This document shows, piece by piece, positions 42,773 through 59,714 of a DNA stretch of 64,000 nt. The first letter of the stretch is position 1; every line of letters begins with the position of its first letter. Below the pieces are notes generated by a model. The model saw only the letters and a list, made by a program, of their open reading frames with translations. It did no database searches and was not told where the DNA came from. Source of the stretch: Solirubrobacter ginsenosidimutans (GTDB taxonomy: Bacteria; Actinomycetota; Thermoleophilia; Solirubrobacterales; Solirubrobacteraceae); the NCBI RefSeq assembly GCF_027587205.1, contig NZ_JAPDOD010000008.1:124001-188000 (forward strand), read 5' to 3'. The position numbers were made by a program, and so were the translations under genes.

Positions 42773-43711
42773 TCAGTGCAAAGTGGTCAGAGTCGACCAC
42801 GTGCGCCCGCCGTCCTTGGACCGGCGGATCTTGCCGCCGACCACGGCGGCGAGGATCTCGCCCTGCCGGCCGGCCGTGACTTCGCTGGGCAGGCCGCCGA
42901 TGTCGCCGCGGTCCTGCCAGGTGCGCCCGCCGTCGGTGCTGGCGCGGACCTTGCCGTTGCGGTCGACGCTGTAGAGCGCGTCCTTGCTCGGCCAGATCAG
43001 CCGCGCGCCGAAGGTCGTGTCGCGCGGGCGCCAGGACTGCCCGGCGTTCGTGGAGACGAAGGTGCCCTGCTCGGTCGAGACCGCCCACTGCTGCGGATCG
43101 CCGGGATTGACGACGACGTCGATGGGCGCCGCGGGCGGTGTCCGCTTCTCCCAGGTCGCGCCGCCGTCGCTGGAGACCTGGATGTCGGGCGACTCGGCGT
43201 TGACGCCGAGGATCAGCTTCCCGGCCATCTCGAGCTCGTGGTAGTCGGCCTCCGGCCCCTGGACGCGCTCCCAGGTGGCGCCGTGGTCCTTGGAGCGGAT
43301 CAGCCCCAGGTTCTCCGGGAGCTCACCGTCCTGGGGATGGCCGGAGGCGAGCAGGTCGTCGGGGCCTGCGAAGCGCACGACGAGGTTGCCGGAGACTCTG
43401 CCGCCCGGGAGCTGGCCGGTGAGGCGCTCGGCCTCCTTCGCGCCGGGAGCGAGGCGGAACAGCGCCGGCCCGGAGCCGACCATGATCGTCCCGTCGCCGG
43501 GGTCGACCGTGACCGAGTTGATCGCCGGGCTGGACCCGTCGCCGGCCGGCGGCGGCGCGGTGGCGGCGGGATCGGCGGTCGTGGGCGCTTCGGTCGGCGC
43601 CTCGGTGGGCGCGCTGGTCGGGCTCGCGGGCGGCGCCGGGTCACCGCCGCAGGCGGCGAAGGCCAACGTTGCCGCGAGCACGCACGCGCGCGCGAGGGGC
43701 TCAATCCGCAC
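42773..43711 (-). CDS. Asp-box (BNR/YCF48-like) beta-propeller lipoprotein
   Basis: 312 residues. Lipobox LAFAAC near residue 21, Thr/Pro/Glu linker, then five Asp-box motifs SxDxGxTW (SKDHGATW, SSDGGATW, STNAGQSW, STDGGRTW, SKDGGRTW), as in sialidase/YCF48-type propellers. No sialidase catalytic residues (RIP, Tyr nucleophile) were seen, so binding or assembly is more likely than hydrolysis. GTG 43711 overlaps the end of the ThuA gene by 11 bp, so the two lipoproteins are coupled. Confidence 0.82.
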   Translation of the reverse strand: MRIEPLARACVLAATLAFAACGGDPAPPASPTSAPTEAPTEAPTTADPAATAPPPAGDGSSPAINSVTVDPGDGTIMVGSGPALFRLAPGAKEAERLTGQLPGGRVSGNLVVRFAGPDDLLASGHPQDGELPENLGLIRSKDHGATWERVQGPEADYHELEMAGKLILGVNAESPDIQVSSDGGATWEKRTPPAAPIDVVVNPGDPQQWAVSTEQGTFVSTNAGQSWRPRDTTFGARLIWPSKDALYSVDRNGKVRASTDGGRTWQDRGDIGGLPSEVTAGRQGEILAAVVGGKIRRSKDGGRTWSTLTTLH

Positions 43712-44474
43712 AGTCGAACCTCGCGCGGCCGGCGGCCATCTCGAGCGCGCCGAGCAGGTGCGCCAAGAAGCGAGGCTCGGCGTAGGACTCCTTCGTATGA
43801 CCCATCGCGGTGTACACCGAGCGGCCGCCATCGTAGCGGTGACACCACGCGAGCGGACGCGTTTGGTCGAGCGCGGCGAGCACATGCGCGGCCGGCGCCG
43901 AGCGGAACTCGTACCACTCGTCCGTGCGCACCCACGGGTTCGGAAGCGTCCGGGTGGCGGCCGTTCCGGGGTCGAGGATCTCCACGCCGCGCGACGACAG
44001 GCCGGGGTCATGGCGCTTGAAGCGCGCACCCACGAGCCGCTCGTACCACGGCCAGTCCCCGCGCGTGTCGGAGGCCGCGTGGATCCCGAGATAGCCACCG
44101 CCTCGGCGGATGTATGACACAAAAGCGGACCGCTGTTTGCCACTCTTTATCGGGGTCCCGGTCGTCGAGAGGAACACCACCGCGTCGTAGCGCTCGAGGG
44201 AGCGGGTGGTGAACCTCCCCGCGTCGGCGGTCGTATCCACGGAGAAGGAGTGGCGGGCGGCGAGGCGCTTGATCGCGGCCACGCCGGAGGGGATGGAGTC
44301 GTGGCGGTAGCCCGTCGTCTTGGTGAACACGAGCACGCGGAAGGGCTTCGGCCCCGTCTGCGCCACGGGCTCGCTCCCGCACGCCGTGCAGATTGCAAGC
44401 ACTACCAGAAACAAAAGCGGTCTAGCGATTCGTTTTGCCTTCCAACAAACAGACTTGGTCTTGACACAGAGCAT
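43701..44474 (-). CDS. ThuA-domain lipoprotein
   Basis: 257 residues from ATG 44474. Lipobox in LAICTAC near residue 30, then a ThuA (class-I amidotransferase-like) domain: VLVFTKTTGYRHDSIPSG, YDAVVFLSTTG, RRGGGYLGIHAASDTRGDWPWYERLVGARF, WYEFRS and YDGGRSVYTAMGHT. ThuA proteins act on trehalose or keto-sugars, often as partners of Gfo/Idh dehydrogenases. A TTG at 44483 is an alternative start. Its start is only 12 bp from the plus-strand leader ORF of the ebo operon, so the two promoters must overlap. Confidence 0.85.
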   Translation of the reverse strand: MLCVKTKSVCWKAKRIARPLLFLVVLAICTACGSEPVAQTGPKPFRVLVFTKTTGYRHDSIPSGVAAIKRLAARHSFSVDTTADAGRFTTRSLERYDAVVFLSTTGTPIKSGKQRSAFVSYIRRGGGYLGIHAASDTRGDWPWYERLVGARFKRHDPGLSSRGVEILDPGTAATRTLPNPWVRTDEWYEFRSAPAAHVLAALDQTRPLAWCHRYDGGRSVYTAMGHTKESYAEPRFLAHLLGALEMAAGRARFDCAD

Positions 44475-44479
44475 AAAGT
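44474..44479 (+). promoter_or_regulatory. -10 box before the ebo leader ORF
   Basis: TAAAGT, 7 nt before ATG 44487. A TTGACA at 44461 is too near (7 nt) to be its -35. A second TACGCT is at 44511-44516. Confidence 0.4.
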
Positions 44480-44486
44480 GCAAGCG

Positions 44487-44546
44487 ATGAGGCGAGAAGA
44501 AGCACGACGCTACGCTCGTTCAGTGTCTAAGGGTCTGGTGGGATGA
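44487..44546 (+). CDS. Candidate 19-residue leaderless leader peptide of the ebo operon
   Basis: MRREEARRYARSVSKGLVG, highly basic, begins 7 nt after a TANNNT box and ends in a TGA that overlaps the ATG of the next gene (ATGA at 44543-44546). The next gene has only a weak ribosome site of its own, so a translated leader would explain how ribosomes reach it. It contains a Tyr and seven Arg codons but no run of one codon. Too short to judge by codon use. Confidence 0.35.
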   Translation: MRREEARRYARSVSKGLVG

Positions 44547-45706
44547 ACGAAGATCGCCGCGTTGGAGTGTGGCTCGTCGGCGGCCGCGGGTCGGTCGCGA
44601 CGACTGCGATGACGGGCGCCGCGGCGGTTGCCGCCGGCCTGGCCGAGCCGACCGGGCTCGTCACGATGCGCCCGCCGTTCACCGACGCGGGTCTCGTCGG
44701 ACTGGGCGATCTGATCTTCGGCGGGCACGACGTCGTGGAGACGCCGCTGGCGATCCGCGCCGCCCGCCTGGTTGACGACGGCGTGCTGCCCGTCGGCCTC
44801 CCGGGCGCGCTCGCCGGCGCGCTGGAGGCGGCGGAATCCGAGCAGCGCCCCGGCATCACCGGCCGCGAGGCGCGGATCGAGCCGCAGGCCTCGCTCGCCC
44901 GCATGGTCAGCGACCTCAACGCGTTCCGCACCCGCCACGATCTCGGGCGCGTCGTCGTCCTCAACGTGTCCTCGACCGAGGCGCCGGTGGAGCCGCACCC
45001 GGCCCACGAGAACCCGGCCGCGCTGATGGACGCGCTCGACCAGAACCTGGCCGTGCTCCCGCCCAGCGCGCTCTACGCGCTCGCGGCGATCGAGACCGGC
45101 TGCGCGTACGTCGACTTCACGCCGTCGGTCGGCGCGCGGCTGCCCGCCATCGAGGCGCTGGCCGAGGCGCACGAGGTGCCGCTGGCCGGCAGTGACGGCA
45201 AGACCGGCGAGACGTTCATGAAGTCCGCGCTGGCACCCGCCTTCGCCGCCCGCGCGCTGAAGGTCCGCTCGTGGTCGGGGATGAACCTGCTCGGCGGCGG
45301 CGACGGCGCGGCGCTGGCCGATCCCGCTCGCGCGCAGTCCAAACTGGACTCCAAGGGCCGGCTGCTGGAGGAGATCCTCGGCTACCCGGTCGAGGCGCCG
45401 ATCTACATCCAGGACGTCCGCGACATGGGCGAGTGGAAGACGGCCTGGGATCACGTCGTCTTCGAGGGCTTCCTCGGCATCCGGATGAAGCTGCAGTTCA
45501 CGTGGGAGGGCTGCGACTCGGCCCTGGCCGCTCCGCTGATCCTCGACCTGATCCGGCTCGCGGCGCTGGCGCTGGAGCGGGGCGAGTCCGGCGTGCTGAC
45601 CAACCTCGCGTTCTTCTTCAAGGACCCGGCCGGGACCCGTGAGCATCAGCTCCACCGCCAGTACGAGATGCTGGAGCGCTGGGTGCTCCAGAAGGTCGCC
45701 GCGTGA
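44543..45706 (+). CDS. Inositol-3-phosphate-synthase family protein heading the ebo operon
   Basis: 387 residues. Nucleotide-binding WLVGGRGSVATT at residues 10-21, VVLNVSSTEAP, GSDGKTGETFMKS, RSWSGMNLLGGGDG and DMGEWKTAWDHVVFEG match the MIPS fold (NAD-dependent cyclisation of glucose-6-phosphate to inositol phosphate). In cyanobacterial ebo operons the corresponding place is held by EboD, a different sugar-phosphate cyclase, so this looks like a functional substitute. Overlaps by 4 bp with the leader upstream and with eboC downstream (GTGA). Confidence 0.85.
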   Translation: MNEDRRVGVWLVGGRGSVATTAMTGAAAVAAGLAEPTGLVTMRPPFTDAGLVGLGDLIFGGHDVVETPLAIRAARLVDDGVLPVGLPGALAGALEAAESEQRPGITGREARIEPQASLARMVSDLNAFRTRHDLGRVVVLNVSSTEAPVEPHPAHENPAALMDALDQNLAVLPPSALYALAAIETGCAYVDFTPSVGARLPAIEALAEAHEVPLAGSDGKTGETFMKSALAPAFAARALKVRSWSGMNLLGGGDGAALADPARAQSKLDSKGRLLEEILGYPVEAPIYIQDVRDMGEWKTAWDHVVFEGFLGIRMKLQFTWEGCDSALAAPLILDLIRLAALALERGESGVLTNLAFFFKDPAGTREHQLHRQYEMLERWVLQKVAA

Positions 45707-46578
45707 GTCTTCCCGCGCCGGCGGATGTGGCGGAGCTGGTCCGCCTGCCGGCGGTGCTGAGTGTGCCGGGGGACGTGCTCGTCGGCGCCGCCGCCTCCGG
45801 GCAGGTGTGGAACCTGCCGCGGACGGCCGGGATGGTCGCCGCGTCCTCATGCCTATATCTGGCGGGGATGGCGCTCAACGACTACGCCGACCGCGAGGTC
45901 GACGCCGTCGAGCGGCCCGGCCGCCCGATCCCGTCGGGCCGCGTCTCGCCAGGGTTCGCGCTCGGCCTCGCCGGGGCGCTGACGGCCGGCGCCGTCGTGC
46001 TCTCGGTGGCCGCCGACGGCAAGCGCGCGCTCGCCGTCACGGCGCCGCTGGCCGCGGCCGTCTGGGGCTATGACCTCGTGCTGAAGTCGACACCGGTCGC
46101 CTCGGGCAGCATGTCCGCCTGCCGCGGGCTGGACGTGATGATGGGCGCGGGCGCGCGGGGTGCGGTGTCCGCGGCCCCGGCGGCGGCGGTCGTCGCCGCG
46201 CACATCGCGGTCGTCACCGAGGTCTCGCGCCGTGAGGTCACCGGCGGCGACGCCGCGGTGCCCAAGCGCGCGCTCGCCGCCACCGTGGGCGTGGCCGCCG
46301 CGGGCGCGTTGCTCAGCCGCCGCGCTCCGCGCTTCGGGCGCGCCGCCGCGCTGGGGCTCGTCGGCGCGTACGCCGCGGTCGTCGGTCGCGCGCACGCGGC
46401 CGCCGCGGCCGACCCGACTCCGGCGCTCATGCAGCGGGCCGTGGGTACGGGCATCATGGGCTTGATCCCGCTGGAGGCCGGGCTGCTGGCGGGGTCCGGC
46501 GCTGTCGTTCCGGCCGCGGGCGTCGCCACACTGTGGCCGATCGCCCGCCGGGCGGCCAAGAGGAGAGCAGTTACATGA
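45703..46578 (+). CDS. eboC: EboC/SCO3242-type UbiA prenyltransferase
   Basis: 291 residues, about eight membrane helices. The prenyl-diphosphate-binding Asp motif is MALNDYADREVDAVERPGRP; the second motif is degenerate (EVSRREVTGGDAAVPKR), as in the EboC/SCO3242 group. It probably attaches an isoprenoid to the (sugar- or cyclitol-derived) product of the operon, in the membrane. GTG 45703 overlaps the upstream stop. A 40-bp gap with a purine-rich ribosome site follows. Confidence 0.85.
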   Translation: MSLPAPADVAELVRLPAVLSVPGDVLVGAAASGQVWNLPRTAGMVAASSCLYLAGMALNDYADREVDAVERPGRPIPSGRVSPGFALGLAGALTAGAVVLSVAADGKRALAVTAPLAAAVWGYDLVLKSTPVASGSMSACRGLDVMMGAGARGAVSAAPAAAVVAAHIAVVTEVSRREVTGGDAAVPKRALAATVGVAAAGALLSRRAPRFGRAAALGLVGAYAAVVGRAHAAAAADPTPALMQRAVGTGIMGLIPLEAGLLAGSGAVVPAAGVATLWPIARRAAKRRAVT

Positions 46579-46618
46579 TCGGTGGCGCTGGTCCCGTCAC
46601 CGAGGGGGGAGGGCGGTT

Positions 46619-47473
46619 GTGAGTCTCCGGTACGGGTATGTGTCGAACGGGTTGTCGGATCATCGGCTCGAGCACGCGCTCGAGTTGCTGGCCGAGAACG
46701 GGTACTCCGGCGTCGCGCTGACGCTGGACCACATCCACTTCGACCCGCTGGCACCGCGCCTGCGCGCGCGGGCGGCGCGGTTGCGGACCGAGCTCGACGT
46801 GCTCGGGATGAACGCCGTGGTCGAGACGGGCGCGCGCTTCGTGCTCGACCCGCGGCGCAAGCACTTCCCGACGCTCGTCTCCGACGGCCGCCAGCGGCGG
46901 GTCGACCTGCTGTGCACCGCGGTCGACGTCGCGGCGGAGCTGGGTGCGCCGGTCGTGTCGATGTGGTCGGGCGCCGCGCCTGCCGGCGAGCCGCGCGAGC
47001 TGGCCTGGGACCTGCTGGTCGACGGGTGCGAGCGGGTGCTCACGCACGCGGAGAACCACGGGATCACGCTTGCGTTCGAGCCGGAGCCGGGGATGCTCGT
47101 CGAGACGCTGGCCGACTACGAATCGCTGGCGGAGCGCCTCGGCCACCCGCCGGCGCTGGGGCTGACGCTCGATATCGGGCACATCGTCTGCTTGGAGCCG
47201 ATGTCGGTGACCGAGTGCGTGCGCCGCGGCGCGGCCACGCTCGCCCACGTGCACATCGAGGACATGAAGCGCGGCGTCCACGAGCACCTCGAGTTCGGCG
47301 CGGGCGAGCTCGATCTCGGCGAGGCGCTGACGGTGCTCGGCGAGGTCGGCTACGAGGGCATGGTCGCCGTCGAGCTCTCGCGCCACTCGCACGCCGCGCA
47401 CGAGATGGTGCCGCGGGCGATGGCCGCCTTGCGTGCCGCCGAGCCGCGCCGCGTCATGGGCGAGGTCACGTGA
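46619..47473 (+). CDS. Sugar phosphate isomerase/epimerase (xylose-isomerase-like barrel) in the ebo operon
   Basis: 284 residues. TIM barrel with the metal-site series ENGYSGVALTLDHIHF, VVSMWSGA, LAFEPEPGMLVET, LTLDIGHIVCL, LAHVHIEDMKRG and VAVELSRHSH, so Glu, Asp, His and Glu ligands are all present. It may isomerise the cyclitol or sugar made by the first gene. GTG 46619 has GGGGGGAGGG upstream and ends in TGATG with the next gene. Confidence 0.85.
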   Translation: MSLRYGYVSNGLSDHRLEHALELLAENGYSGVALTLDHIHFDPLAPRLRARAARLRTELDVLGMNAVVETGARFVLDPRRKHFPTLVSDGRQRRVDLLCTAVDVAAELGAPVVSMWSGAAPAGEPRELAWDLLVDGCERVLTHAENHGITLAFEPEPGMLVETLADYESLAERLGHPPALGLTLDIGHIVCLEPMSVTECVRRGAATLAHVHIEDMKRGVHEHLEFGAGELDLGEALTVLGEVGYEGMVAVELSRHSHAAHEMVPRAMAALRAAEPRRVMGEVT

Positions 47474-48195
47474 TGACGCTCGCCGAGCTCTCCGCCGCCC
47501 TCGAGGCGCGGGCCAAGCCCGAAGGGCTCACCTGGCTGCGTGAGGCGAGCGCGAGCGTCGCCGCCGACCCGACCGCGATCCGCACCCGCTTCCCGATGGT
47601 CGGCCGCAAGGTCGGGCGCGAGCCGCTGGACGCGGGCGCCGATGCCTCGGACATCTTCGCGTGGACGATCGACGACGCCGCGCGCACGCTGCTGCTGCTC
47701 GCGCTCGGCGACGCGGCCGAGGGCGAACTGGCCGAGCTCTACCGCTTCGGCGACGCGGCCGAGCGGCGCGGGATCCTGCGCGCGCTGGAGTTCCTGGACC
47801 TCGGCGACCGCGCGCTGTACCTGACCGACGACGCGATCCGCACCAACGACACGCGGCTGATCGCCGCGGCGCTCGGTCCGTACGCCACCGAGCACCTGTC
47901 CGACGCGCAGTACGACCAGGCCGTCCTGAAGTGCGTCTTCGTCGGCGTCCCGATCACGCCGCTCGACGGCATCCCCGAGCGCGTCACGCCGGACGGCGCG
48001 CGGATGCTCGCCGCGTTCGTGCATGAGCGTGTCGCCGCCGGCCGGGACGTCCCCGCCGAGGTCTGGATCGTCATCGACAAGTATCCGCACGCCGACGAGA
48101 TCGCCGCGATCGAGGCCGAGCTCGAGAGCGAGTTCGACGATCGCCGCGCGGCCGCCGAGCGGGCTTTGAGTCACAGAACTGGAGAGCGAGCATGA
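47473..48195 (+). CDS. eboA: EboA-domain protein
   Basis: 240 residues, nearly all helical and rich in Ala/Glu/Asp. Recognised by operon position and by EboA-like stretches (TWLREASASVAADPTAIRTRFPMV, AWTIDDAARTLLLLALGD, DLGDRALYLTDDAIRTND, AVLKCVFVGVPI). EboA is required for the ebo function in other bacteria but its biochemistry is unknown. ATG 47473 overlaps the preceding stop by one base; its own stop overlaps eboB by 4 bp. Confidence 0.75.
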   Translation: MTLAELSAALEARAKPEGLTWLREASASVAADPTAIRTRFPMVGRKVGREPLDAGADASDIFAWTIDDAARTLLLLALGDAAEGELAELYRFGDAAERRGILRALEFLDLGDRALYLTDDAIRTNDTRLIAAALGPYATEHLSDAQYDQAVLKCVFVGVPITPLDGIPERVTPDGARMLAAFVHERVAAGRDVPAEVWIVIDKYPHADEIAAIEAELESEFDDRRAAAERALSHRTGERA

Positions 48196-49055
48196 GGATC
48201 TTCGACCCGCACGCGCACATGACGTCGCGCACCACCGACGACTACGAGGCGATGGCCGCGTCCGGCGTGAAGGTGCTCGTGGAGCCGGCGTTCTGGCTCG
48301 GCCAGCCGCGCACCTCCGTGGGCTCGTTCATCGACTACTTCAACTCGCTGCTGGGCTGGGAGCGCTTCCGCGCCGCGCAGTTCGGCATCCGTCATCACTG
48401 CACGATCGGCCTGAACCCGAAGGAGGCCAACGACGACCTCCTGCGCCGCGAGGTCATCGACATCCTCCCGCGCTTCCTGGCCAAGGACGGCGTCGTCGCC
48501 GTCGGCGAGGTCGGCTTCGATGCGATGACGCCCGCCGAGGACGAAGCGCTGACGCTGCAGCTCGCTTTGGCGGTCGAGCACGAGCTTCCGGTGCTGGTCC
48601 ACACGCCGCACCGCGACAAGGCGGCGGGCACGCGCAAGACGATCGAGCTCGTCGAGGCCTCCGGCATCGCGCCCGAGATGGTCGTCATCGACCACAACAA
48701 CGAGCTGACCGTCCATGACGTGCTGGCGTCGGGCTGCTGGGCGGGCTTCTCGATCTACCCAGGCACCAAGATGGACGAGCACCGCATGGTGCGCGTGCTC
48801 GAGGAGCACGGCCCGGAGCGGCTGATCGTCAACTCGGCCTGCGACTGGGGCGTGTCGGATCCGCTGAAGGTCCGCAAGACCGCCGACGCGATGAAGGCCG
48901 CCGGCTTCGACGACGACGTGATCGATCAGGTGGTCTGGCGCAACCCGGTGGAGTTCTTCGCGCAGAGCGGGCGGCTGATCCTCGACGATCTCGAGGAGGC
49001 GGACCTCACCGCGACGTTCGAGGGCTCGGGTGTCCTTCGCGGTGAGCGGGCGTGA
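48192..49055 (+). CDS. eboB: EboB, TatD-like metal-dependent hydrolase
   Basis: 287 residues. Metal-site motifs FDPHAHMTS (HxH), GEVGFDAMT (Glu), LVHTPHRDK (His), VIDHNNELT (His) and SACDWGVSDPL (Asp) are intact, so it should be a working phosphohydrolase/amidohydrolase-type barrel. In cyanobacteria the EboB family belongs to the operon needed for export of the scytonemin precursor. ATG 48192 overlaps eboA and its stop overlaps eboE. Confidence 0.88.
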   Translation: MRIFDPHAHMTSRTTDDYEAMAASGVKVLVEPAFWLGQPRTSVGSFIDYFNSLLGWERFRAAQFGIRHHCTIGLNPKEANDDLLRREVIDILPRFLAKDGVVAVGEVGFDAMTPAEDEALTLQLALAVEHELPVLVHTPHRDKAAGTRKTIELVEASGIAPEMVVIDHNNELTVHDVLASGCWAGFSIYPGTKMDEHRMVRVLEEHGPERLIVNSACDWGVSDPLKVRKTADAMKAAGFDDDVIDQVVWRNPVEFFAQSGRLILDDLEEADLTATFEGSGVLRGERA

Positions 49056-50188
49056 GGCTGCGGCACGCTGACGGCAGCCTCCTGCACCTCGCCTACTGCT
49101 CCAACGTCCATCCGGCGGACGACCTCGACGGGGTCGCCGCGCAGCTCGAGCGCTACACGGCGCGGGTGCGTGCGAAGCTCGACGTCCCGGTTCTGGGGAT
49201 CGGGTTGTGGGTGGCGGCGCCGGCGCTGGCCGACGCGGCTGCCGCTGACCGGCTCGCTTCGCAGCTGGCGCGGCTCTCGCTCGAGGTCGTGACCTTGAAC
49301 GGGTTCCCGTACAAGGCGTTCCACGCGCCGGTGGTCAAGCGCGACGTCTACTGGCCGCACTGGGCGCAGGAAGACCGGCGCCAGTACACGCTCGGGCTGG
49401 CCCGGCTGTTGGCCAAGCTGCTGCCGGACGATGTGGTCGAGGGCTCGATCTCGACGCTGCCGCTGGGGTGGCGCGAAGGCTGGGACGACGCGGCGCAGGA
49501 TGCCGCTTTGCGCGCGCTGGCGGACCTCGCGGTCGAGCTCGAAGAGATCGAGGCCGCGACCGGCAAGCGGATCCGGCTCGCGCTGGAGCCCGAGCCGGGG
49601 TGCACGGTCGAGACGATCGCCCAGGCCTGCGACGCGATCGGCGGGCTCGCGCCCGACTGGATCGGCGTGTGCCTGGATGCCTGCCACCTGGCGGTGCAGT
49701 TCGAGGATCCGGTCGAGGCCGTCGCGCTGATGGCCGCGAGCGACGTCGCGATCGTCAAGACCCAGGTCTCCTCCGCGCTGCGCGTGCCGTCGCCGGGGAC
49801 GGCCGAGGGCCGCGAGCTGCTCGCGCGCTTCAACGAGCCGAAGTTCCTGCACCAGGTCCGCGAGTGCGTGAACTCGCACGTCGAGGGCACGGACGATCTG
49901 CCCGAGGCTTTGGAGGGCGGTCTGCCCGGCGAGCGCGAGTGGCGCGTGCACTTCCACGTGCCGGTCAACAGCGCCGAGCACACGACCCAGGACGAGCTGA
50001 GCGCGACGCTCGCGGCGTTGGCCGGCGGCACGGCGCCGTTGACGCGACACTTCGAGGTCGAGACATACACGTGGAGCGTCATGCGCGATGCTCCGCAGGA
50101 CGACGAGGGGCTCGTCGCCGGGCTGGCCGGCGAGCTGGAATGGACGCGCGACCGCCTGGTCGCGCTCGGTGCGGAGGTTTTGGGATGA
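49052..50188 (+). CDS. eboE: EboE, metabolite-traffic TIM-barrel protein
   Basis: 378 residues. N-terminal LAYCSNVHPADDLDGV, NGFPYKAFHAPVVKRDVYWPHW, LEPEPGCTVETI, CLDACHLAVQFEDP and HFEVETYTWSV are the marks of the EboE branch of the xylose-isomerase-like fold. The metal site appears complete. Role in the pathway is unknown; named for its link to export of a natural-product precursor. GTG 49052 and the 3' end both overlap neighbours by 4 bp. Confidence 0.88.
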   Translation: MRLRHADGSLLHLAYCSNVHPADDLDGVAAQLERYTARVRAKLDVPVLGIGLWVAAPALADAAAADRLASQLARLSLEVVTLNGFPYKAFHAPVVKRDVYWPHWAQEDRRQYTLGLARLLAKLLPDDVVEGSISTLPLGWREGWDDAAQDAALRALADLAVELEEIEAATGKRIRLALEPEPGCTVETIAQACDAIGGLAPDWIGVCLDACHLAVQFEDPVEAVALMAASDVAIVKTQVSSALRVPSPGTAEGRELLARFNEPKFLHQVRECVNSHVEGTDDLPEALEGGLPGEREWRVHFHVPVNSAEHTTQDELSATLAALAGGTAPLTRHFEVETYTWSVMRDAPQDDEGLVAGLAGELEWTRDRLVALGAEVLG

Positions 50189-51573
50189 CGTTGGTCGTGA
50201 TCGACGCGGTGGGTCTGACGCCGCGGGCGCTGAAGCACATGCCGCGCGTGTCCAAGCTGGGCGCCGACGGCTTCCAGGCGACGCTGGACACGATCACCCC
50301 CGCGGTCACCTGCTCCGTCCAGGCGACGCTGCTGACGGGCCTGCAGCCGACCGATCACGGCATCGTCGGCAACGGCTGGTACTTCCGCGACCTCGGTGAG
50401 GTCTTCCTCTGGCGCCAGCACAACAAGCTCGTGCAGGGCGAGAAGGTGTGGGAGACCGCGCGCCGCTCCAAGCCCGGCTACCGGGCCGCGAACCTCTGCT
50501 GGTGGTACGCGATGGGCGCGACCACCGACCTGACGGTCACCCCGCGCCCGATCTACCACGCCGACGGTGCGAAGTCGCCGGATTGCTACACGTATCCGCC
50601 GCAGCTGCACGACAACCTCACCGGCCCGCTCGGCGAGTTCCCCCTGTTCCAGTACTGGGGCCCGACGGCGAACATCAAGTCCACCAAGTGGATCGCCGAC
50701 GCGGCCAAGATCGTGCTGGACAACGAGGCACTGGACCTGCTGCTGGTCTACCTGCCCCACCTGGACTATGACCATCAGCGCTTCGGGCCTGAGGGCACGG
50801 AGGCGCTGAAGGCCGCGCGCGAGCTCGACGAGGTCGCCGGCGACCTGATCGACCACGCACGCGCGCGCGGGGACCAGGTCGTCGTGCTGAGCGAGTACGG
50901 CATCACGCCCGCTCGCCGCCCGGTCGAGATCAACCGTGCGCTGCGCCGTGCGGGGCTGCTGAACGTGTACACGCAGGCGGGCATGGAGTACCTGGACCCG
51001 TGGACCTCACGCGCGTTCGCGGTCTCCGACCATCAGATCGCGCACGTCTACGTCCCGAACGCGGCCGACCTGCCCGCGGCGCGCGAGGCGATCGCCGCGC
51101 TGGATGGCGTGGGTGAGATCCTCGAAGGCGAGGCGCTCAGCACGGCGGGCCTGGCCCACGAGCGCTCCGGCGAGCTCGTCGTGCTCGCCGAGCGCGACGC
51201 CTGGTTCACCTACCACTACTGGCTCGACAACGCCCACGCCCCGGACTTCGGCCAGCAGGTCGAGATCCACCGCAAGCCGGGCTACGACCCCGCCGAGCTC
51301 TTCATGGACCCCGACGACGAGAAGGGCGCCAAGCTCCGTGCGGGCCTCGCGCTCGCGCGCAAGAAGACGGGCTTCCGCTACGTGATGAGCGTGGTCGGCC
51401 TCGACGCCTCCAAGTACGTCAAGGGCACCCACGGCCTGCTCCCGGACAACGACGAGGACGCGCCGGTGTTCCTGTGCAGCGACAAGTCCGTCGCGCGCGA
51501 CCGCATCGCTGCGACCGACGTGCGCGACGTGCTGCTGGAACTCAGCGGCGTTTCGGCGCCGACGAACGTCTGA
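50185..51573 (+). CDS. eboF: EboF, alkaline-phosphatase/nucleotide-pyrophosphatase superfamily protein
   Basis: 462 residues. Phosphodiesterase-type metal site: first Asp in VVIDAVGLTP, Thr/Ser nucleophile region TPAVTCSVQATLLTG, YLPHLDYDHQRFG, VVLSEYGITP (Glu where many relatives have Asp) and AVSDHQIAHVY. It likely removes or transfers a phosphate from the operon's product; no signal peptide, so cytoplasmic. ATG 50185 overlaps eboE. The operon ends here and a long hairpin follows. Confidence 0.88.
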   Translation: MTLVVIDAVGLTPRALKHMPRVSKLGADGFQATLDTITPAVTCSVQATLLTGLQPTDHGIVGNGWYFRDLGEVFLWRQHNKLVQGEKVWETARRSKPGYRAANLCWWYAMGATTDLTVTPRPIYHADGAKSPDCYTYPPQLHDNLTGPLGEFPLFQYWGPTANIKSTKWIADAAKIVLDNEALDLLLVYLPHLDYDHQRFGPEGTEALKAARELDEVAGDLIDHARARGDQVVVLSEYGITPARRPVEINRALRRAGLLNVYTQAGMEYLDPWTSRAFAVSDHQIAHVYVPNAADLPAAREAIAALDGVGEILEGEALSTAGLAHERSGELVVLAERDAWFTYHYWLDNAHAPDFGQQVEIHRKPGYDPAELFMDPDDEKGAKLRAGLALARKKTGFRYVMSVVGLDASKYVKGTHGLLPDNDEDAPVFLCSDKSVARDRIAATDVRDVLLELSGVSAPTNV

Positions 51574-51581
51574 CGAACCGA

Positions 51582-51631
51582 GGGGTGGCTTACGTTTCTC
51601 CCCTGTGAGAGGGAGAAACGTCAGCCACCCC
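51582..51631. terminator. 21-bp near-perfect hairpin closing the ebo operon
   Basis: Arms 51582-51602 and 51611-51631 match at 20 of 21 positions around an 8-nt loop, 8 bases after the eboF stop and between convergent genes. No T-run. Likely a bidirectional terminator for eboF and the ROK gene ending at 51690. The rest of the gap to 51689 shows nothing else. Confidence 0.8.
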
Positions 51632-51689
51632 CGTGCGCCGCTCCCGCCGGGGCACACCCGTGCCCCCGCTTGAGTGGCTGTCGTTGTGC

Positions 51690-52856: not shown

Positions 52857-52876
52857 CACATCGCTCCAATCGTCAC

Positions 52877-54232: not shown

Positions 54233-54331
54233 GTAAGGAGTTAACCAGACTTCGCGGCCCAAAACGACTGAAGTGCTCACGATGACACGGGGATTGTCGC
54301 TCGACACGTCTAACTCACTGCAACCTTTTGC

Positions 54332-54360
54332 TTGACAGTTGGATAAAGCCCGGCTAGGTT
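54332..54360 (+). promoter_or_regulatory. Promoter of the Gfo/Idh-ABC importer operon, TTGACA-N17-TAGGTT
   Basis: Perfect -35 (54332-54337), 17-nt spacer and TAGGTT (54355-54360), then 7 nt to ATG 54368. This is the clearest promoter in the window and predicts a leaderless mRNA. Confidence 0.85.
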
Positions 54361-54367
54361 GGTCCGC

Positions 54368-55522
54368 ATGTCACGAGGTGTTCGTGTTGCCATCGCAGGG
54401 ACCGGGTTCATCGGTGCCGTTCATGCGCGCTCCGCCCGGCTTGCAGGCGCTCGCCTCGTCGGGGTTGCCGCGTCCACACCCGAGCGCGCGGCTCGCGCGG
54501 CGGGCGTCTTAGGAGCCGAGCGCGCCTTCGCGTCCGCGCAGGCGCTCGTGGAATCCCCGGACGTGGACGTCGTCCACATCTGCACGCCCAACAATCTGCA
54601 CGTCCCGCTCGCCGAGGCGGCGCTCGCGGCCGGCAAGCATGTGATCTGCGAGAAGCCGATCGCGCTCGACAGCTTCGGCGCGCAGCAGATCACCGATGCC
54701 GCGGCTGACGCGGACCGGATCGCGGCCGTGCCCTTCGTCTACCGGTACTACCCGACGGTGCGCGAGGCGCGCGAGCGCGTGCGCTCGGGTGTGTCGGGCC
54801 CCGCGCGGCTGATCCACGGCTCCTATCTGCAGGACTGGCTGCTGCGTCCCGAAGATGACAACTGGCGCGTGGAAGAGGACCTCGGCGGCGCCTCGCGCGC
54901 CTTCGCCGACATCGGCTCGCACTGGTGCGATCTCGCGGAGTTCGTCAGCGGCCAGCGGATCACCCGCCTGTGCGCCCAGACGCTGACCGCGCTCCCGGAG
55001 CGCATCAAGAACGAGTCGCACGCGGCCTTCCAGTCCGTCGACGGCGACGGCACGCCCCGCTCGGTCGGCACCGAGGACGCGGCCGTCGTCCAGTTCGAGA
55101 CCGACGGCGGCGCGGTCGGGTCCACGATCATCAGCCAGATCTCGGCGGGCCGCAAGAACCGGCTCTGGCTCGAGATCGACGCCTCCAACGAGGCCCTGGT
55201 CTTCTGCCAGGAGGAGCCCGAGTCGCTGTGGGTCGGCCGTCGTGAGAGCGCGACGCTGATCAAGCGCGACCCCGAGCACCTCTCGGCGGCGGCGCAGCGC
55301 TACGCCGTGCTGCCCGCCGGACATCCCCAAGGCTACGCTGACTGCTTCGACGCGTTCGTGGCGGAGGTCTACGACGCGGTGGCCGGCAACGAGCCGGCGG
55401 GTGGATTGCCGGTCTTCGCGGACGGCCTGCGGGCCTCGCGCATCACCGACGCCGTCCTCACGTCGGCGCGCGAGGAGCGATGGGTGGATGTCATGATCGA
55501 AGCTGCGGGGGTGACCGGATGA
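54368..55522 (+). CDS. Gfo/Idh/MocA-family NAD(P)-dependent sugar/cyclitol dehydrogenase
   Basis: 384 residues. N-terminal Rossmann motif VAIAGTGFIGAVHARSA, then VDVVHICTPNNLH and the catalytic EKPIALD (Lys). The substrate domain carries GGASRAFADIGSHWCDLAEF with the conserved Asp/His pair. It oxidises a sugar or cyclitol (myo-inositol dehydrogenase is a well-known member). First gene of an operon with a ribose-type importer (ATGA overlap with the ATPase). The start is fixed by the promoter; an upstream TTG at 54359 is part of the -10 region. Confidence 0.92.
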   Translation: MSRGVRVAIAGTGFIGAVHARSARLAGARLVGVAASTPERAARAAGVLGAERAFASAQALVESPDVDVVHICTPNNLHVPLAEAALAAGKHVICEKPIALDSFGAQQITDAAADADRIAAVPFVYRYYPTVREARERVRSGVSGPARLIHGSYLQDWLLRPEDDNWRVEEDLGGASRAFADIGSHWCDLAEFVSGQRITRLCAQTLTALPERIKNESHAAFQSVDGDGTPRSVGTEDAAVVQFETDGGAVGSTIISQISAGRKNRLWLEIDASNEALVFCQEEPESLWVGRRESATLIKRDPEHLSAAAQRYAVLPAGHPQGYADCFDAFVAEVYDAVAGNEPAGGLPVFADGLRASRITDAVLTSAREERWVDVMIEAAGVTG

Positions 55523-57045
55523 GTAACGACGCGCCTCTGCTCGAGGTCCGGGGGATCACGAAGCAGTATCCGGGGGTGCGCGCCCTCAAGGGCGTGGACT
55601 TCGACGTGCGCGCTGGGGAAGTGCACTGCCTGCTGGGGCCTAACGGCGCCGGCAAATCGACGTTGATCAAGTGCGTGTCGGGCGTGGTCGCCCCGACCGA
55701 GGGAGAGATCCTCGTCGAAGGTCAGCTGCTGCCCGTCGGCGAGCCGTCGGAGTCCATGGCCCGGGGGGTCGGGACGATCTATCAGGAACTCGACCTCGTC
55801 GAGGACCTGCGCGTCGCCGAGAGCATCTTCCTCGGGCACGAGCCGCGCCGCTTCGGCCTGATGGACCGGTCGAAGATGAAGGCCGAGACGCGCGCGCTGC
55901 TCGAGCGCCTCGGGCACGCCGACATCGGCGCCGACATGTTCGTGCGCTCGCTGCGCCCCGCGGCCCAGCAGATCGTCTCGATCGCCCGCGCGCTGTCGCG
56001 TGACGTCAAGTTGCTGATCATGGACGAGCCGTCCGCGATCCTCGACGACGGCGAGGTCGAGGTCCTCTTCGGCGTGGTCCGCAGGCTTGCGGCCGACGGC
56101 GTCGGCGTCATCTACATCTCGCACCGCCTGGACGAGATCAAGCGCATCGGCGACCGCGTCACGGTGCTCTCCGACGGGCGCACGGTGGCGACCGGCCTCC
56201 CGGCCGACACGCCCCGCGGCGAGCTCGTCGAGAAGATGGTCGGCCGCCGCGTCGACCAGCTCTATCCCGACCGCGCCAAGGGCTCTGACGATGTCGTCCT
56301 CGACGTGCGCGGCGTCTCCCACGCGCCGCGGGTCAAGGAGTGCTCGTTCGAGGTCCGCGCCGGCGAGGTCGTCGGGATCGGCGGCCTGGTGGGCGCCGGC
56401 CGGACCGAGCTGCTGCGGCTGGTCTACGGGCTCGATCGGCCCGACACCGGCGAGGTCTACCTCGACGGTAAGAAGCTTCCGTCAGGGCGTCCGGACGTCG
56501 CGATCGATCGCGGGATCGGCCTCGCGCCCGAGGATCGCAAGTCCCAGGGCCTGCTGCTCGGCTGGAGCCTGTCCAAGAACGTCAGCCTCTCCGACCTGCG
56601 CCGGTTCACGACCGGCGGCTGGATCAGCCTGAAGGCCGAGCGCGAGGCCACCGGCGAGAAGCTCCGCGAGCTCAATACGGTGCCGGACGATCCGGACCGG
56701 ATCACGCGTGAGCTCTCCGGCGGCAACCAGCAGAAGGTCGTGCTCGCGCGCTGGCTGCTGCGCGATTGCCGCGTGCTGCTGCTCGACGAGCCGACGCGCG
56801 GCGTCGACGTCGGCGCCAAGGCCGAGATCTACCGTCTGATCGCCGAGCTCTCGGCGCGGGGCATCGCCGTCGTGGTGGTCTCGTCGGAGATGGAAGAGCT
56901 GATGGGGCTGAGCACCCGCATCCTCATCATGCGCGAGGGCGAGCTCGTCGCCGAGCTCGCAGGGGAGAGCGCGACCGAGGTCGAGCTCCTGAGCCACGCC
57001 GTCGCCCCGACGGATACCGATGTTGTCTTGGAGGAGACCCGATGA
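55519..57045 (+). CDS. Sugar ABC transporter ATP-binding protein (RbsA-type, two domains)
   Basis: 508 residues. First ATPase domain: Walker A GPNGAGKST, degenerate signature LRPAAQQIVSIARALS, Walker B LLIMDEPSAIL. Second domain: weak Walker A GLVGAGRTELL, signature LSGGNQQKVVLARWL, Walker B LLLDEPTRGVD. This asymmetric pair is typical of RbsA/MglA/XylG. Overlaps the genes on both sides by 4 bp. Energises uptake of a monosaccharide or cyclitol. Confidence 0.95.
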   Translation: MSNDAPLLEVRGITKQYPGVRALKGVDFDVRAGEVHCLLGPNGAGKSTLIKCVSGVVAPTEGEILVEGQLLPVGEPSESMARGVGTIYQELDLVEDLRVAESIFLGHEPRRFGLMDRSKMKAETRALLERLGHADIGADMFVRSLRPAAQQIVSIARALSRDVKLLIMDEPSAILDDGEVEVLFGVVRRLAADGVGVIYISHRLDEIKRIGDRVTVLSDGRTVATGLPADTPRGELVEKMVGRRVDQLYPDRAKGSDDVVLDVRGVSHAPRVKECSFEVRAGEVVGIGGLVGAGRTELLRLVYGLDRPDTGEVYLDGKKLPSGRPDVAIDRGIGLAPEDRKSQGLLLGWSLSKNVSLSDLRRFTTGGWISLKAEREATGEKLRELNTVPDDPDRITRELSGGNQQKVVLARWLLRDCRVLLLDEPTRGVDVGAKAEIYRLIAELSARGIAVVVVSSEMEELMGLSTRILIMREGELVAELAGESATEVELLSHAVAPTDTDVVLEETR

Positions 57046-58016
57046 CCACCACCCCCGCGGCGCCGGCCGCGAATGCACCCGCGCCGGCGAGGTCCGGGCG
57101 CAAATTCAACTTCCAGGACTACGCCCTGGTCGCGGTGATCGCGATCCTGATCATCGTGGGCGGGATCCTCGAGGGGTCCTCGTTCGTCTCCAAGGACAAC
57201 TTCTTCAACGTCCTGCGCCAGGGCAGCATCGTCGGCGTCCTCGCGATCGGCATGACGTTCGTCATCGCCACCGCGGGCATCGACCTGTCGGTCGGCTCGA
57301 TGGTCGCCGCCTGCGGCGTCGCCGGCGGCCTGCTCGTGGACTCGGGCGACCTGATGTTCATCGTGGCCGCCTTGGCCTTCGGCATCGCCCTCGGCGCCAT
57401 CAACGGCGCGGCGATCTCCTACGGCAAGGTCGTGCCGTTCATCGCGACCCTGGCGATGCTGCTGATCGCCCGAGGGCTGGCGCTCTGGATGAGCGACAAG
57501 ACCCCCATCTCGCTGTTCAGTCTTGACTCTGTGCGTTGGTTCGGAACTGGGGAGATCCTGACCATCCCGTCGTCGCTCGTCGTGTTTCTCGTCGTGGCGG
57601 CGATCGGTTGGGTGCTTTTGAATCGCACCCCGTATGGCCGCTACGTCGTAGCGGTCGGTGGCAATCCGGAGGCAGCACGCATCGCCGGTGTGAAGGTCCA
57701 GCGGATCCTGTTCAGCGTGTACGTGCTGAGCGGGCTCTGCGCTGGTATTGCCGCGGTCCTGCTGTGCGGCCGGCTGGCGAGCGCCTCGCCCGTCTCCGGC
57801 AACCTGTACGAGCTCGACGCGATCGCCGCCGTGGTTATCGGCGGGACGAGCCTGGCCGGAGGTCGCGCGACGATCGTCGGCACGGTCCTCGGCGTCATCA
57901 CGTTCGCGCTCGTCTTCAACCTGCTCACGCTGATGAATCTCGCGGTTGAGATCCAGCAGGTGACCAAGGGCGGGATCATCCTCGCCGCGGTCCTCCTGCA
58001 GCGTCGTAGCAGCTGA
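57042..58016 (+). CDS. Sugar ABC transporter permease (RbsC-type)
   Basis: 324 residues, eight to ten membrane helices. Conserved GMTFVIATAGIDLSVGSM and GNPEAARIAGVKVQRI are the marks of RbsC/AraH permeases. An Ala/Pro-rich cytoplasmic N-terminus precedes the first helix. ATG 57042 has GGAGGAG upstream and overlaps the ATPase stop. Confidence 0.95.
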   Translation: MTTTPAAPAANAPAPARSGRKFNFQDYALVAVIAILIIVGGILEGSSFVSKDNFFNVLRQGSIVGVLAIGMTFVIATAGIDLSVGSMVAACGVAGGLLVDSGDLMFIVAALAFGIALGAINGAAISYGKVVPFIATLAMLLIARGLALWMSDKTPISLFSLDSVRWFGTGEILTIPSSLVVFLVVAAIGWVLLNRTPYGRYVVAVGGNPEAARIAGVKVQRILFSVYVLSGLCAGIAAVLLCGRLASASPVSGNLYELDAIAAVVIGGTSLAGGRATIVGTVLGVITFALVFNLLTLMNLAVEIQQVTKGGIILAAVLLQRRSS

Positions 58017-58058
58017 TCTACATCGTTCCTAGGTAGTCCAATGAGGAGGAGTGCCCAA

Positions 58059-59099
58059 ATGAAGTTCAAGCGTGTCGCGCCGGTGGTGTTCACCGGCATG
58101 GCCCTCATGGGCGTCGCCGCCTGTGGCGGTAGCGACAACAAGTCAGATACTGCGTCGACTCCGACGGCGACGGCTTCGGCCAGCACCGACGAGGCCGCGG
58201 TCCAGGGCGCGTCGGACGTCAAGGTCGCGTTCAGCGCCCCGGCGGCCGACCATGGTTGGCTCAAGGCGCTGTCCGACAACGCCAAGGCCAAGGCCAAGGA
58301 GCTCGGCATCGACATGAAGGTGTCCGACAGCGCGACGACGTCGGCCGAGCAGGCCGATCAGATCGAGACGCTGATCCAGGACAAGCCCGACGTGCTCGTC
58401 GTGCTCCCGAACGAGGGTGAGCCGCTCACGCCCGTCGCCCAGAAGGCGATGGACCAGGGCATCCAGGTCATCAACATCGACCGCGAGTTCTCGGCCGCTT
58501 CGGCGTACCACACGCTGATCGCGGGCGACAACTACGGCATCGGCGTGCAGGCCGGCAACTTCTTCGCCGACCAGCTGAAGTGCAAGGGCAACGTCGCCGA
58601 GATCCAGGGCATCGCCGGCATCTCCGTGACCGAGCAGCGCTCGCAGGGCTTCGCCGACCAGATCAAGAAGCGCTGCAACGGCGGCATCAAGATCGTCGCG
58701 CAGCAGCCGGCCGACTTCGCGCCGGACAAGGGCCTCACCGTCATGGAGAACATCCTCCAGAAGAACAAGGACATCCAGGCCGTCTACACGCACGACGACG
58801 ACATGGGTGAGGGCGTCGCGGCCGCCATCGAGAACGCCGGCCTCCAGGACAAGATCTGGATGACGGGCGCCGGCGGCTCCAAGGCCGTCATGAACAAGAT
58901 CAAGGAAGGCAGCGAGTGGAAGGCGACCTTCCTCTACAACCCGGCCATGTCCGCTGACGCGGTGTACCTCGCGTCGCTGCTGGGTCAGAAGAAGGGCCTC
59001 CCGGGCTTCGCCGCTCCGGACATCCCCTCCAAGATCATCCTCTCGGCCACCACGGTGACCAAGGACAACGTCGATCAGTACATGAGCCTCGGCTTCTAA
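58059..59099 (+). CDS. Sugar-binding lipoprotein (periplasmic-binding-protein type 1, RbsB-like)
   Basis: 346 residues. Lipobox GVAAC near residue 23, Thr/Ala linker, then a type-1 sugar-binding fold (VKVAFSAPAADHGWLKALSDN, INIDREFSA, AGDNYGIGVQAG, VYTHDDDMGEGVAAAIE). It captures the sugar for the importer encoded just upstream. ATG 58059 has GAGGAGGAG upstream; an in-frame ATG at 58041 lies before the ribosome site. A 42-bp gap with its own strong ribosome site allows higher expression than the permease. Confidence 0.95.
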   Translation: MKFKRVAPVVFTGMALMGVAACGGSDNKSDTASTPTATASASTDEAAVQGASDVKVAFSAPAADHGWLKALSDNAKAKAKELGIDMKVSDSATTSAEQADQIETLIQDKPDVLVVLPNEGEPLTPVAQKAMDQGIQVINIDREFSAASAYHTLIAGDNYGIGVQAGNFFADQLKCKGNVAEIQGIAGISVTEQRSQGFADQIKKRCNGGIKIVAQQPADFAPDKGLTVMENILQKNKDIQAVYTHDDDMGEGVAAAIENAGLQDKIWMTGAGGSKAVMNKIKEGSEWKATFLYNPAMSADAVYLASLLGQKKGLPGFAAPDIPSKIILSATTVTKDNVDQYMSLGF

Positions 59100-59673: not shown

Positions 59674-59701
59674 TACGCTGACCCGTGGAAAACGCTTTCC
59701 A
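59674..59701 (+). promoter_or_regulatory. -10 box TACGCT and LacI-type operator TGGAAAACGCTTTCCA
   Basis: TACGCT (59674-59679) is followed by the 16-bp operator (59686-59701), which has the central CG and TGGAAA/TTTCCA arms typical of LacI/GalR proteins (one mismatch between halves). It lies over the expected transcription start and 13 bp before ATG 59715. A LacI gene is found 3' of the operon. Confidence 0.75.
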
Positions 59702-59714
59702 TGGGGGAGAGGTG

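What the first reader, a model, noticed from the sequence alone, without database searches (positions are those of the whole stretch)
44487..51631. An ebo-type operon headed by an inositol-phosphate-synthase-like protein
Seven genes, mostly overlapping by 1-4 bp, encode an MIPS-family protein, EboC, a sugar isomerase, EboA, EboB, EboE and EboF, closed by a long hairpin. In cyanobacteria and others the ebo operon carries EboD, another sugar-phosphate cyclase. Here the cyclase place seems taken by a MIPS-like enzyme, which predicts a cyclitol-phosphate that is prenylated by the UbiA protein and then dephosphorylated. The product is unknown in actinobacteria.
Basis: partly seen in the sequence, partly recalled or inferred. 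Interest (0 to 1): 0.72.

Follow-up and report, generated by a model that had tools for sequence, protein, structure and literature searches.

The report
Inositol-synthase version of ebo operon
A seven-gene operon found in many actinobacteria, with relatives in salt-loving archaea, looks like the known but poorly understood 'ebo' pathway with its ring-forming enzyme swapped for an inositol-phosphate synthase, which suggests that it builds an unknown fat-soluble ring molecule tied to chemistry outside the cell.

Summary
Window 44543-51573 (+) encodes MIPS-like, UbiA prenyltransferase, TIM-barrel isomerase (T), EboA-domain, TatD/EboB, EboE and EboF proteins; five of six junctions overlap by 1 or 4 bp. 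All seven genes occur in this order in 64 of 80 loci found through MIPS. In an EboE-seeded sample of 296 actinobacterial genomes, 13 of 15 EboE loci carry MIPS and none EboD. Seven EboD clusters from three other phyla lack MIPS and T. It is not the housekeeping inositol synthase: all 24 related genomes tested hold a separate Ino1. Related MIPS clusters occur in Gemmatirosa and, without EboA/EboE, on three haloarchaeal plasmids.

Secreted ThuA/glucose-dehydrogenase-type proteins and Gfo/Idh/MocA enzymes are enriched directly upstream. T-EboA fusions (15 of 87 loci) were already noted in print in 2016.

Best reading: MIPS plus T replace EboD and feed a prenylated-cyclitol lipid serving extracellular chemistry. 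Anatomy shown; product and function inferred. New variant of a known kind.

The parts
44543..45706 (+). MIPS-like cyclase (M), archaeal-type, in the EboD role
   Evidence: PF07994/PF01658; best solved relative A. fulgidus mIPS 1u1i 217 bits, next 7nwr 151.6, Mtb-type Ino1 1gr0 38.5, five-membered-cyclitol-phosphate synthase 6k96 43.7; K267, K271, K299, K360 in 103 of 103 sequences
45703..46578 (+). UbiA-superfamily prenyltransferase, SCO3242 family / EboC-like (C)
   Evidence: NF045897 326 bits over cut-off, EboC NF035940 139 under cut-off; N59 D60 D63 D67 each in at least 95% of 89
46619..47473 (+). xylose-isomerase-like TIM barrel (T), partner of MIPS
   Evidence: PF01261 124 bits; E154, D185, E252 each in at least 95% of 89, position 212 is H here and Q in most; one reading frame with EboA in 15 of 87 loci
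47473..48195 (+). EboA-domain protein (A), helical solenoid by model
   Evidence: NF035938 147 bits over cut-off; AlphaFold2 pLDDT 96.7, all helical; HEAT/armadillo-like rows only, none significant in Foldseek
48192..49055 (+). EboB, TatD-like metal hydrolase (B)
   Evidence: PF01026 49.5 bits; highest mean pairwise identity of the seven, 0.74 over 80 loci
49052..50188 (+). EboE, TIM-barrel protein (E)
50185..51573 (+). EboF, alkaline-phosphatase-fold protein with degenerate metal site (F)
   Evidence: PF01663 212 bits; V9, Q198, E237, Y238 in place of NPP metal ligands
51574..51640 (+). long hairpin between convergent genes, possible transcription end
   Evidence: -41.8 kcal/mol, z -6.57; no T run
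43704..44483 (-). context: divergent ThuA-domain protein, N terminus lipoprotein-like by eye
   Evidence: PF06283 210.8 bits; ThuA hit in 34 of 88 operon loci
42776..43711 (-). context: BNR/sortilin-like beta-propeller, N terminus lipoprotein-like by eye
   Evidence: PF02012, PF15902
51693..54307 (-). context: two ROK-family regulators (51693-52880, 53006-54307)
   Evidence: PF00480; ROK hit in 38 of 88 loci
54359..55519 (+). context: Gfo/Idh/MocA oxidoreductase
   Evidence: PF01408/PF22725; levoglucosan and inositol dehydrogenase models under their cut-offs; hit in 37 of 88 loci
55480..59096 (+). context: sugar-type ABC importer (ATPase 55480-57042, permease about 57042-58013, binding protein 58041-59096)
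   Evidence: PF00005 for the ATPase; permease frame open; binding protein by homology to relatives' cluster; permease and binding protein of the window were not run against Pfam
59685..62766 (+). context: second Gfo/Idh/MocA, DUF993, TIM-barrel isomerase

Best explanation
This is a MIPS-headed variant of the ebo operon. Where the other bacteria examined use the sugar-phosphate cyclase EboD, actinobacteria use a MIPS with intact catalytic lysines together with a dedicated TIM-barrel isomerase (T). Most likely MIPS closes glucose 6-phosphate to an inositol phosphate, T (held on the EboA scaffold) and EboE isomerise or dehydrate a derived keto-cyclitol, EboB hydrolyses an intermediate, and the UbiA enzyme attaches a C15-C20 prenyl chain. 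The lipid product then acts at the membrane as a carrier or cofactor for chemistry outside the cell (export of a monomer, or a secreted dehydrogenase). EboF binds or processes a phosphate-bearing intermediate without the canonical two-metal phosphatase site. Shown: gene set, order, linkage, swap, separate Ino1, conserved MIPS lysines, EboF ligand loss, T-EboA fusion. Inferred: substrate, order of steps, prenyl length, product, role.
For: Order kept in 64 of 80 MIPS-seeded loci. EboE-seeded sample: MIPS in 13 of 15 loci (12 of 14 without the centre genome, itself found through MIPS), EboD in none. In 7 of 7 EboD clusters examined outside actinobacteria no MIPS and no T is hit (loci); Gemmatirosa has MIPS and T and no EboD. 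Separate Ino1 in 24 of 24 genomes. Distances of M and E co-vary, r 0.90 over 80 loci, 0 of 999 permutations as high. T-EboA in one frame in 15 of 87 loci. Polyprenyl synthase relatives hit in 25 of 88 loci; downstream of EboF on the same strand in 13 of the 15 loci of that gene cluster, median 42 bp (PF00348 for L021). Immediate upstream genes: Gfo/Idh/MocA 17, GSDH 14, ThuA 13, NHL 3 of 67, against at most 1 each of 65 distal genes. ScyE-family proteins directly upstream in L131 (256 bits) and L004 (290 bits), cut-off 80. Haloarchaeal plasmids L157, L159, L160 repeat MIPS+EboF+TatD+UbiA+T-like, with ThuA beside one and a PQQ sugar dehydrogenase beside another.
Against: No product is known. 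The MIPS product keeps its phosphate whereas sugar-phosphate-cyclase products lose it, so the two routes do not converge trivially. The EboC relatives assayed farnesylate quinoline-type aromatics; cyclitols are not among the acceptors mentioned in the passages seen (PMC9235831). That paper also shows ebo genes in Saccharomonospora (an actinobacterium) and lists EboD for the cluster in general; its figure is not held, so an EboD-type actinobacterial cluster is not excluded. In 23 of 88 loci none of ThuA, Gfo, ROK, ABC ATPase, binding protein or GSDH was hit (30 of the 88 are shorter than 20 kb), so the extracellular role may not be general. Six of 80 loci carry MIPS without other ebo genes, and L133 carries ebo genes without MIPS.
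Confidence: 0.6

Rival explanations
1. The ring is aromatised: MIPS, a Gfo/Idh/MocA dehydrogenase and the TIM-barrel enzymes turn the cyclitol into a polyphenol (IolE-like dehydrations), and the UbiA enzyme C-prenylates it to a new quinone-like redox lipid that serves secreted or membrane dehydrogenases.
For: UbiA enzymes usually prenylate aromatics (recalled); EboC (UbiA-297) farnesylates 8-HQA (PMC9235831, passages). T matches IolO and IolE models weakly, far under their cut-offs, and EboE matches IolI. GSDH, ThuA and PQQ sugar dehydrogenase neighbours.
Against: No dedicated aromatising or oxygenase gene is constant in the operon; Gfo/Idh/MocA was hit in only 37 of 88 loci.
Confidence: 0.2
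2. A 'metabolite traffic' module without a fixed cargo: it helps export monomers made by neighbouring biosynthetic clusters, as ebo does for the scytonemin monomer in Nostoc.
For: [quoted passage not shown] ScyE-family genes and a multicopper oxidase near the operon on two Streptomyces plasmids; the operon in L128 lies among monooxygenase, methyltransferase, purB and glutamine synthetase genes, and a lone EboE lies in a type II polyketide cluster with similar genes; in S. coelicolor SCO3237, SCO3242 and SCO3243 are counted in the CDA cluster.
Against: ScyE in only 3 of 88 loci; importers, ROK and ThuA are far commoner neighbours, which do not look like export clusters.
Confidence: 0.25
3. The operon belongs to a sugar or cyclitol breakdown cluster: importer, ROK, Gfo/Idh/MocA, ThuA and isomerases take up and oxidise a glycoside, and MIPS/UbiA are side branches.
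For: Same kinds of neighbour in the window and in many relatives; 3-keto-disaccharide hydrolase in 10 of 67 immediate upstream genes; ThuA or PQQ dehydrogenase near two haloarchaeal clusters; Lentzea L057 has MIPS in such a setting without ebo genes.
Against: In 23 of 88 loci these neighbours were not hit (some loci are short); a membrane prenyltransferase and an anabolic MIPS fit breakdown poorly.
Confidence: 0.15
4. Ordinary inositol supply for phosphatidylinositol or mycothiol, with unrelated neighbours.
For: Annotated as inositol-3-phosphate synthase in public records.
Against: Separate Ino1 in 24 of 24 genomes; operon MIPS scores 39 of 638 bits on the mycothiol INO1 model; tight linkage and co-variation with EboE.
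Confidence: 0.04

Closest known systems
ebo operon eboABCDEF (cyanobacteria, Bacteroidetes, eustigmatophyte plastids; PMC5133447, PMC6282210)
   Same: EboA domain, TatD-type EboB, UbiA-type EboC, EboE and EboF, clustered and in one direction. The 2016 paper already noted actinobacterial proteins with a xylose-isomerase-like part fused to EboA (data not shown; passage), which is the T-EboA fusion seen here
   Different: No EboD; a MIPS and an extra TIM-barrel isomerase instead; order M-C-T-A-B-E-F; UbiA belongs to the SCO3242 family
SCO3237-SCO3243 of Streptomyces coelicolor, counted in print in the CDA cluster
   Same: Tags seen in print: phosphodiesterase SCO3237, transferase SCO3242, myo-inositol phosphate synthase SCO3243; NCBIfam names the UbiA family after SCO3242; seven tags fit seven genes
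   Different: Sequence not fetched here; that these tags are this operon, and what the middle four are, is inferred
Archaeoglobus fulgidus mIPS (1u1i) and classical MIPS
   Same: Match over 9-381 of 387 residues, 217 bits, four lysines aligned (their catalytic role is recalled)
   Different: Sits in an ebo operon; substrate not tested
Five-membered-cyclitol-phosphate synthase (6k96; Ari2 of aristeromycin, name recalled)
   Same: MIPS homologue recruited to secondary metabolism (recalled)
   Different: Only 43.7 bits
UbiA-297 (EboC of Maribacter)
   Same: UbiA enzyme encoded in an ebo cluster; homologues reported from Saccharomonospora
   Different: The paper describes the cluster with EboD; in vitro acceptors are quinolines (PMC9235831, passages). 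Which cyclase the Saccharomonospora clusters have could not be read

Membership tests
ebo operon | EboE | tested here: met
   NF035939 389.8 bits, cut-off 250
ebo operon | EboA | tested here: met
   Domain model NF035938 147.1 over 50; stricter family model NF035937 90.3 under 320
ebo operon | EboC (UbiA) | tested here: inconclusive
   NF035940 139.3 under 250; sister model NF045897 326.1 over 260
ebo operon | EboB and EboF superfamilies | tested here: met
   PF01026 and PF01663 over gathering score; no ebo-specific model matched them
ebo operon | EboD sugar-phosphate cyclase | tested here: not met
   No tblastn hit of 7 EboDs to L001-L080 or to the other actinobacterial operon loci held then. 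Nine PF01761 matches of relatives, of 32 found, were classified: eight score 136-221 on NF004852 (cut-off 333), one is a glycerol-1-phosphate dehydrogenase; three EboDs score 531-571. Two of the eight (L108 Lentzea 221, L109 S. acidiscabies 202) match that model best and are unresolved cyclases. The window's own genome could not be searched. So it is filed as a variant, not as a canonical ebo operon
ebo operon | genes clustered and co-directional | tested here: met
MIPS (Ino1) enzymes | catalytic lysines | tested here: met
   K267, K271, K299, K360 in 103 of 103, aligned to A. fulgidus 1u1i; the role of these lysines is recalled
mycothiol INO1 (TIGR03450) | equivalog score | tested here: not met
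   39 of 638 bits
NPP/alkaline-phosphatase hydrolases (EboF) | two-metal site | tested here: not met
   Profile alignment to 2gsn: D to V9, H to Q198, D to E237, H to Y238; T42, D194, H416 kept; which NPP residues bind metal is recalled
UbiA prenyltransferases | PF01040 and Asp-rich motif | tested here: met
   55.9 bits over 34.2; N59 D60 D63 D67
scytonemin-type export with ScyE | ScyE-family propeller beside ebo | tested here: inconclusive
   Hit in 3 of 88 relatives; in the window the neighbour matches BNR/sortilin models, ScyE model not run on it

The most novel reading that the evidence does not exclude
The ebo pathway is a trans-domain system (actinobacteria, Gemmatimonadota, haloarchaea) for a new membrane redox lipid or carrier built on an inositol-derived six-carbon ring. 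EboD and MIPS+T are interchangeable entries, so EboD too would make a C6 ring from glucose 6-phosphate rather than a C7 ring from sedoheptulose 7-phosphate, and EboF is a lipid- or phosphate-binding pseudoenzyme. The lipid powers secreted beta-propeller oxidoreductases (ScyE, GSDH), and scytonemin export is one instance.
Probability: 0.22. Interest if true: 0.88.

Novelty: new variant of a known kind. Interest (0 to 1): 0.6.

Why it matters
The product of ebo has been unknown since the operon was named in 2016, although its mutants block scytonemin export. A natural swap of the ring-forming enzyme constrains the chemistry: MIPS has a known reaction, so the variant predicts a six-carbon ring from glucose 6-phosphate and can be tested in vitro. 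It makes genetically tractable actinomycetes usable (probably S. coelicolor SCO3237-SCO3243, hitherto counted with the CDA cluster), and the haloarchaeal relatives suggest that the core is older or more mobile than thought. The lost metal site of EboF argues against the usual reading of EboF as a plain phosphohydrolase.

Tried and rejected
Ordinary inositol synthase: rejected. EboD hidden elsewhere: not found, but tested in part only. 17 of 24 genomes have one PF01761 match; of those single copies only G001's was classified. Of 32 matches in all, nine were classified; two (L108, L109) match the model that EboDs match, at 221 and 202 bits under its cut-off of 333, and stay unresolved; neither lies in the operon. 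tblastn of EboD alone did not separate AroB from EboD (30-37% identity to all it hit).

Literature: no description of a MIPS-type ebo operon was found with searches (one licence-limited library); search 19 on cyclitol-phosphate synthases gave no link to ebo. I first took the T-EboA fusion for new; on re-checking, PMC5133447 already mentions it for actinobacteria, and I lowered the interest from 0.62 to 0.6 for that. Seen of papers: PMC5133447 passages and section 12; PMC6282210 passages and section 7; PMC9235831, PMC3610822, PMC8981147 and PMC2000904 passages; other papers only as listings.

Of 16 plasmid records outside actinobacteria with EboE I looked at 8, one per genus. Five of the 24 genomes were chosen from MIPS-only loci. 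The 80 loci are those with all seven genes found; L143 was dropped by hand. Gene calls in flanks are a simple codon-bias picker and miss or misplace some genes; 21 of 88 loci had no same-strand upstream gene within 700 bp and are not in the 67. Neighbour hits use BLAST and may include other members of broad families such as ABC ATPases. The control lists only its top 25 families; unlisted ones occur at most once. L003 and L005 have about 6 kb between EboB and EboE, L002, L012, L024 and L053 lack members among the hits; not followed.

Full report
What is there. The seven genes claimed are present at 44543-51573 (+), with five of six junctions overlapping by 1 or 4 bp. Profiles identify EboE and the EboA domain over curated cut-offs; the UbiA protein belongs to NCBI's 'SCO3242 family prenyltransferase' and scores below the EboC cut-off; EboB and EboF are placed by superfamily only. 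A hairpin (-41.8 kcal/mol, z -6.57) follows, without a T run, between convergent genes.

How general it is. A MIPS-seeded scan of bacterial and archaeal species genomes kept 80 loci (best 80 of 553 confirmed). In 64 of 80 all seven genes are hit in the same order (54 exactly so, 10 with a gap over 400 bp or an extra copy); of the rest, 4 end at a contig end after UbiA, 6 have MIPS only, and 6 lack one or more members or have them displaced. To avoid that seed, EboE was sought in 296 genomes of the phylum: 14 have it (13 over cut-off), so it is patchy. Of the 15 EboE loci, 13 carry MIPS in the same operon (12 of 14 without the centre genome, which was itself found through MIPS), one (L133) lacks it, one (L145) is broken, and none has EboD. 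Named Streptomyces plasmids show the same operon with NCBI annotation.

The swap. Outside actinobacteria, 16 plasmid records matched EboE; eight were examined, one per genus. Seven (Ketogulonicigenium, Salipiger, Roseivivax, Azospirillum, Mycetohabitans, Deinococcus, Aureibacter; three phyla) have a '3-dehydroquinate synthase' in the cluster, and neither the MIPS nor T of the window hits any of them; three of these synthases score 531-571 bits on NF004852. The eighth, Gemmatirosa, has MIPS (43% identical) overlapping T (49%) with UbiA, EboF, EboB and a divergent EboE; EboA and EboD are not hit. MIPS and T thus go together. T and EboA form one reading frame in 15 of 87 loci, the only recurrent fusion among the six junctions; such hybrids were noted in actinobacteria in 2016 (PMC5133447, passage). 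This suggests that EboA holds T.

Not the housekeeping enzyme. The operon MIPS is nearest to the archaeal enzyme of A. fulgidus (217 bits) and far from the Ino1 of entry 1gr0 (38.5 bits). Ino1 itself lies elsewhere in 24 of 24 genomes: over cut-off in 22, at 541.7 of 638 bits in Solirubrobacter deserti, in two pieces in one. The six MIPS-only copies nest inside the operon clade in two places, so they look like spin-offs. Distances of MIPS and EboE correlate at 0.90 over 80 loci.

Archaea. Three haloarchaeal plasmids (Halobaculum, Halocatena, Natronococcus) hold MIPS (43-48% identical to the window's), EboF-like (38-39%), TatD (42-47%), UbiA (34-47% over the aligned part) and two T-like isomerases each (29-33%); EboA, EboD and EboE are not hit at E 1e-4. 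ThuA and an ABC importer lie near the cluster in Halocatena, a PQQ-dependent sugar dehydrogenase and an importer near that in Natronococcus, neither near that in Halobaculum. A fourth haloarchaeal MIPS (Halomarina) is in another context.

EboF. In a profile alignment to the NPP 2gsn the nucleophile Thr and two ligands remain, but four ligands are replaced. E237 and Y238 are in 97 of 97 sequences, V9 in 95 of 95 aligned, Q198 in 95 of 97 (Leu in two haloarchaea), including seven EboD-type clusters. A canonical two-zinc phosphatase is therefore unlikely; another chemistry or a binding role remains open.

Neighbours. Across 88 operon loci, relatives of the window's neighbours or of a representative were hit as follows: ThuA 34, Gfo/Idh/MocA 37, ROK 38, ABC ATPase 45, GSDH 44, polyprenyl synthase 25, ScyE 3 (30 loci are under 20 kb). 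The gene immediately upstream on the same strand (67 loci) is Gfo/Idh/MocA in 17, carries GSDH in 14, ThuA in 13, 3-keto-disaccharide hydrolase in 10, ROK in 8, NHL in 3. Among 65 distal genes ROK occurs in 4, and Gfo/Idh/MocA, GSDH, ThuA and 3-keto-disaccharide hydrolase in at most one each. In the window the same kinds of gene flank the operon. Against this, 23 of 88 loci show none of ThuA, Gfo, ROK, ABC ATPase, binding protein or GSDH, and one operon and one lone EboE lie in clusters of secondary-metabolism type.

Mechanism. Shown: composition, order, swap, independence from Ino1, intact MIPS lysines, EboF ligand loss, fusion, neighbourhood. Inferred: glucose 6-phosphate to inositol phosphate by MIPS; keto-cyclitol isomerisation or dehydration by T and EboE (fold of ketose epimerases; IolI as the best profile match); prenylation by UbiA with a chain from a linked polyprenyl synthase in some species; a membrane lipid serving extracellular chemistry, as scytonemin export suggests (PMC6282210).

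Verdict. A real and broad variant of the ebo operon, not described in the papers that could be searched apart from its T-EboA fusion, which turns an open question (what does ebo make?) into a defined biochemical test. The product stays unknown.

Noticed in passing
L161:8638-17950 and L162:8797-17498: Roseomonas and Hymenobacter plasmids carry another MIPS cluster: MIPS, Gfo/Idh/MocA, YcaO-like, sugar-phosphate isomerase, PIG-L deacetylase (plus MBL fold and glycosyltransferase 4 in Roseomonas), laid out somewhat like mycothiol genes (recalled); product unknown.
   Followed up: no
L034, L036, L022 around 10000: Micromonospora species hold an extra MIPS copy in what looks by eye like a nonribosomal-peptide-type cluster; the copies nest inside the operon MIPS clade.
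   Followed up: partly
L148:11989-13167: A lone EboE gene without other ebo genes in 25 kb sits inside a type II polyketide cluster on a Streptomyces plasmid.
   Followed up: no
L131:3207-14666, L147:5963-17603: ScyD/ScyE-family gene directly upstream of the MIPS operon, with a response regulator and a multicopper oxidase downstream: looks like a scytonemin-style extracellular oxidation system in Streptomyces.
   Followed up: partly
L057:3338-17901: Lentzea flava: MIPS with genes that look by eye like an importer, Gfo/Idh/MocA, isomerase and ThuA-type proteins, but no ebo genes.
   Followed up: no
L153:2051-5069 and L155:1043-4103: In Mycetohabitans and Aureibacter a hypothetical protein and a ferritin-like protein precede the EboD-type ebo cluster in the same order.
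   Followed up: no
window 60860-61978: DUF993 protein (570.9 bits) of unknown function beside a second Gfo/Idh/MocA gene and a TIM-barrel isomerase.
   Followed up: no
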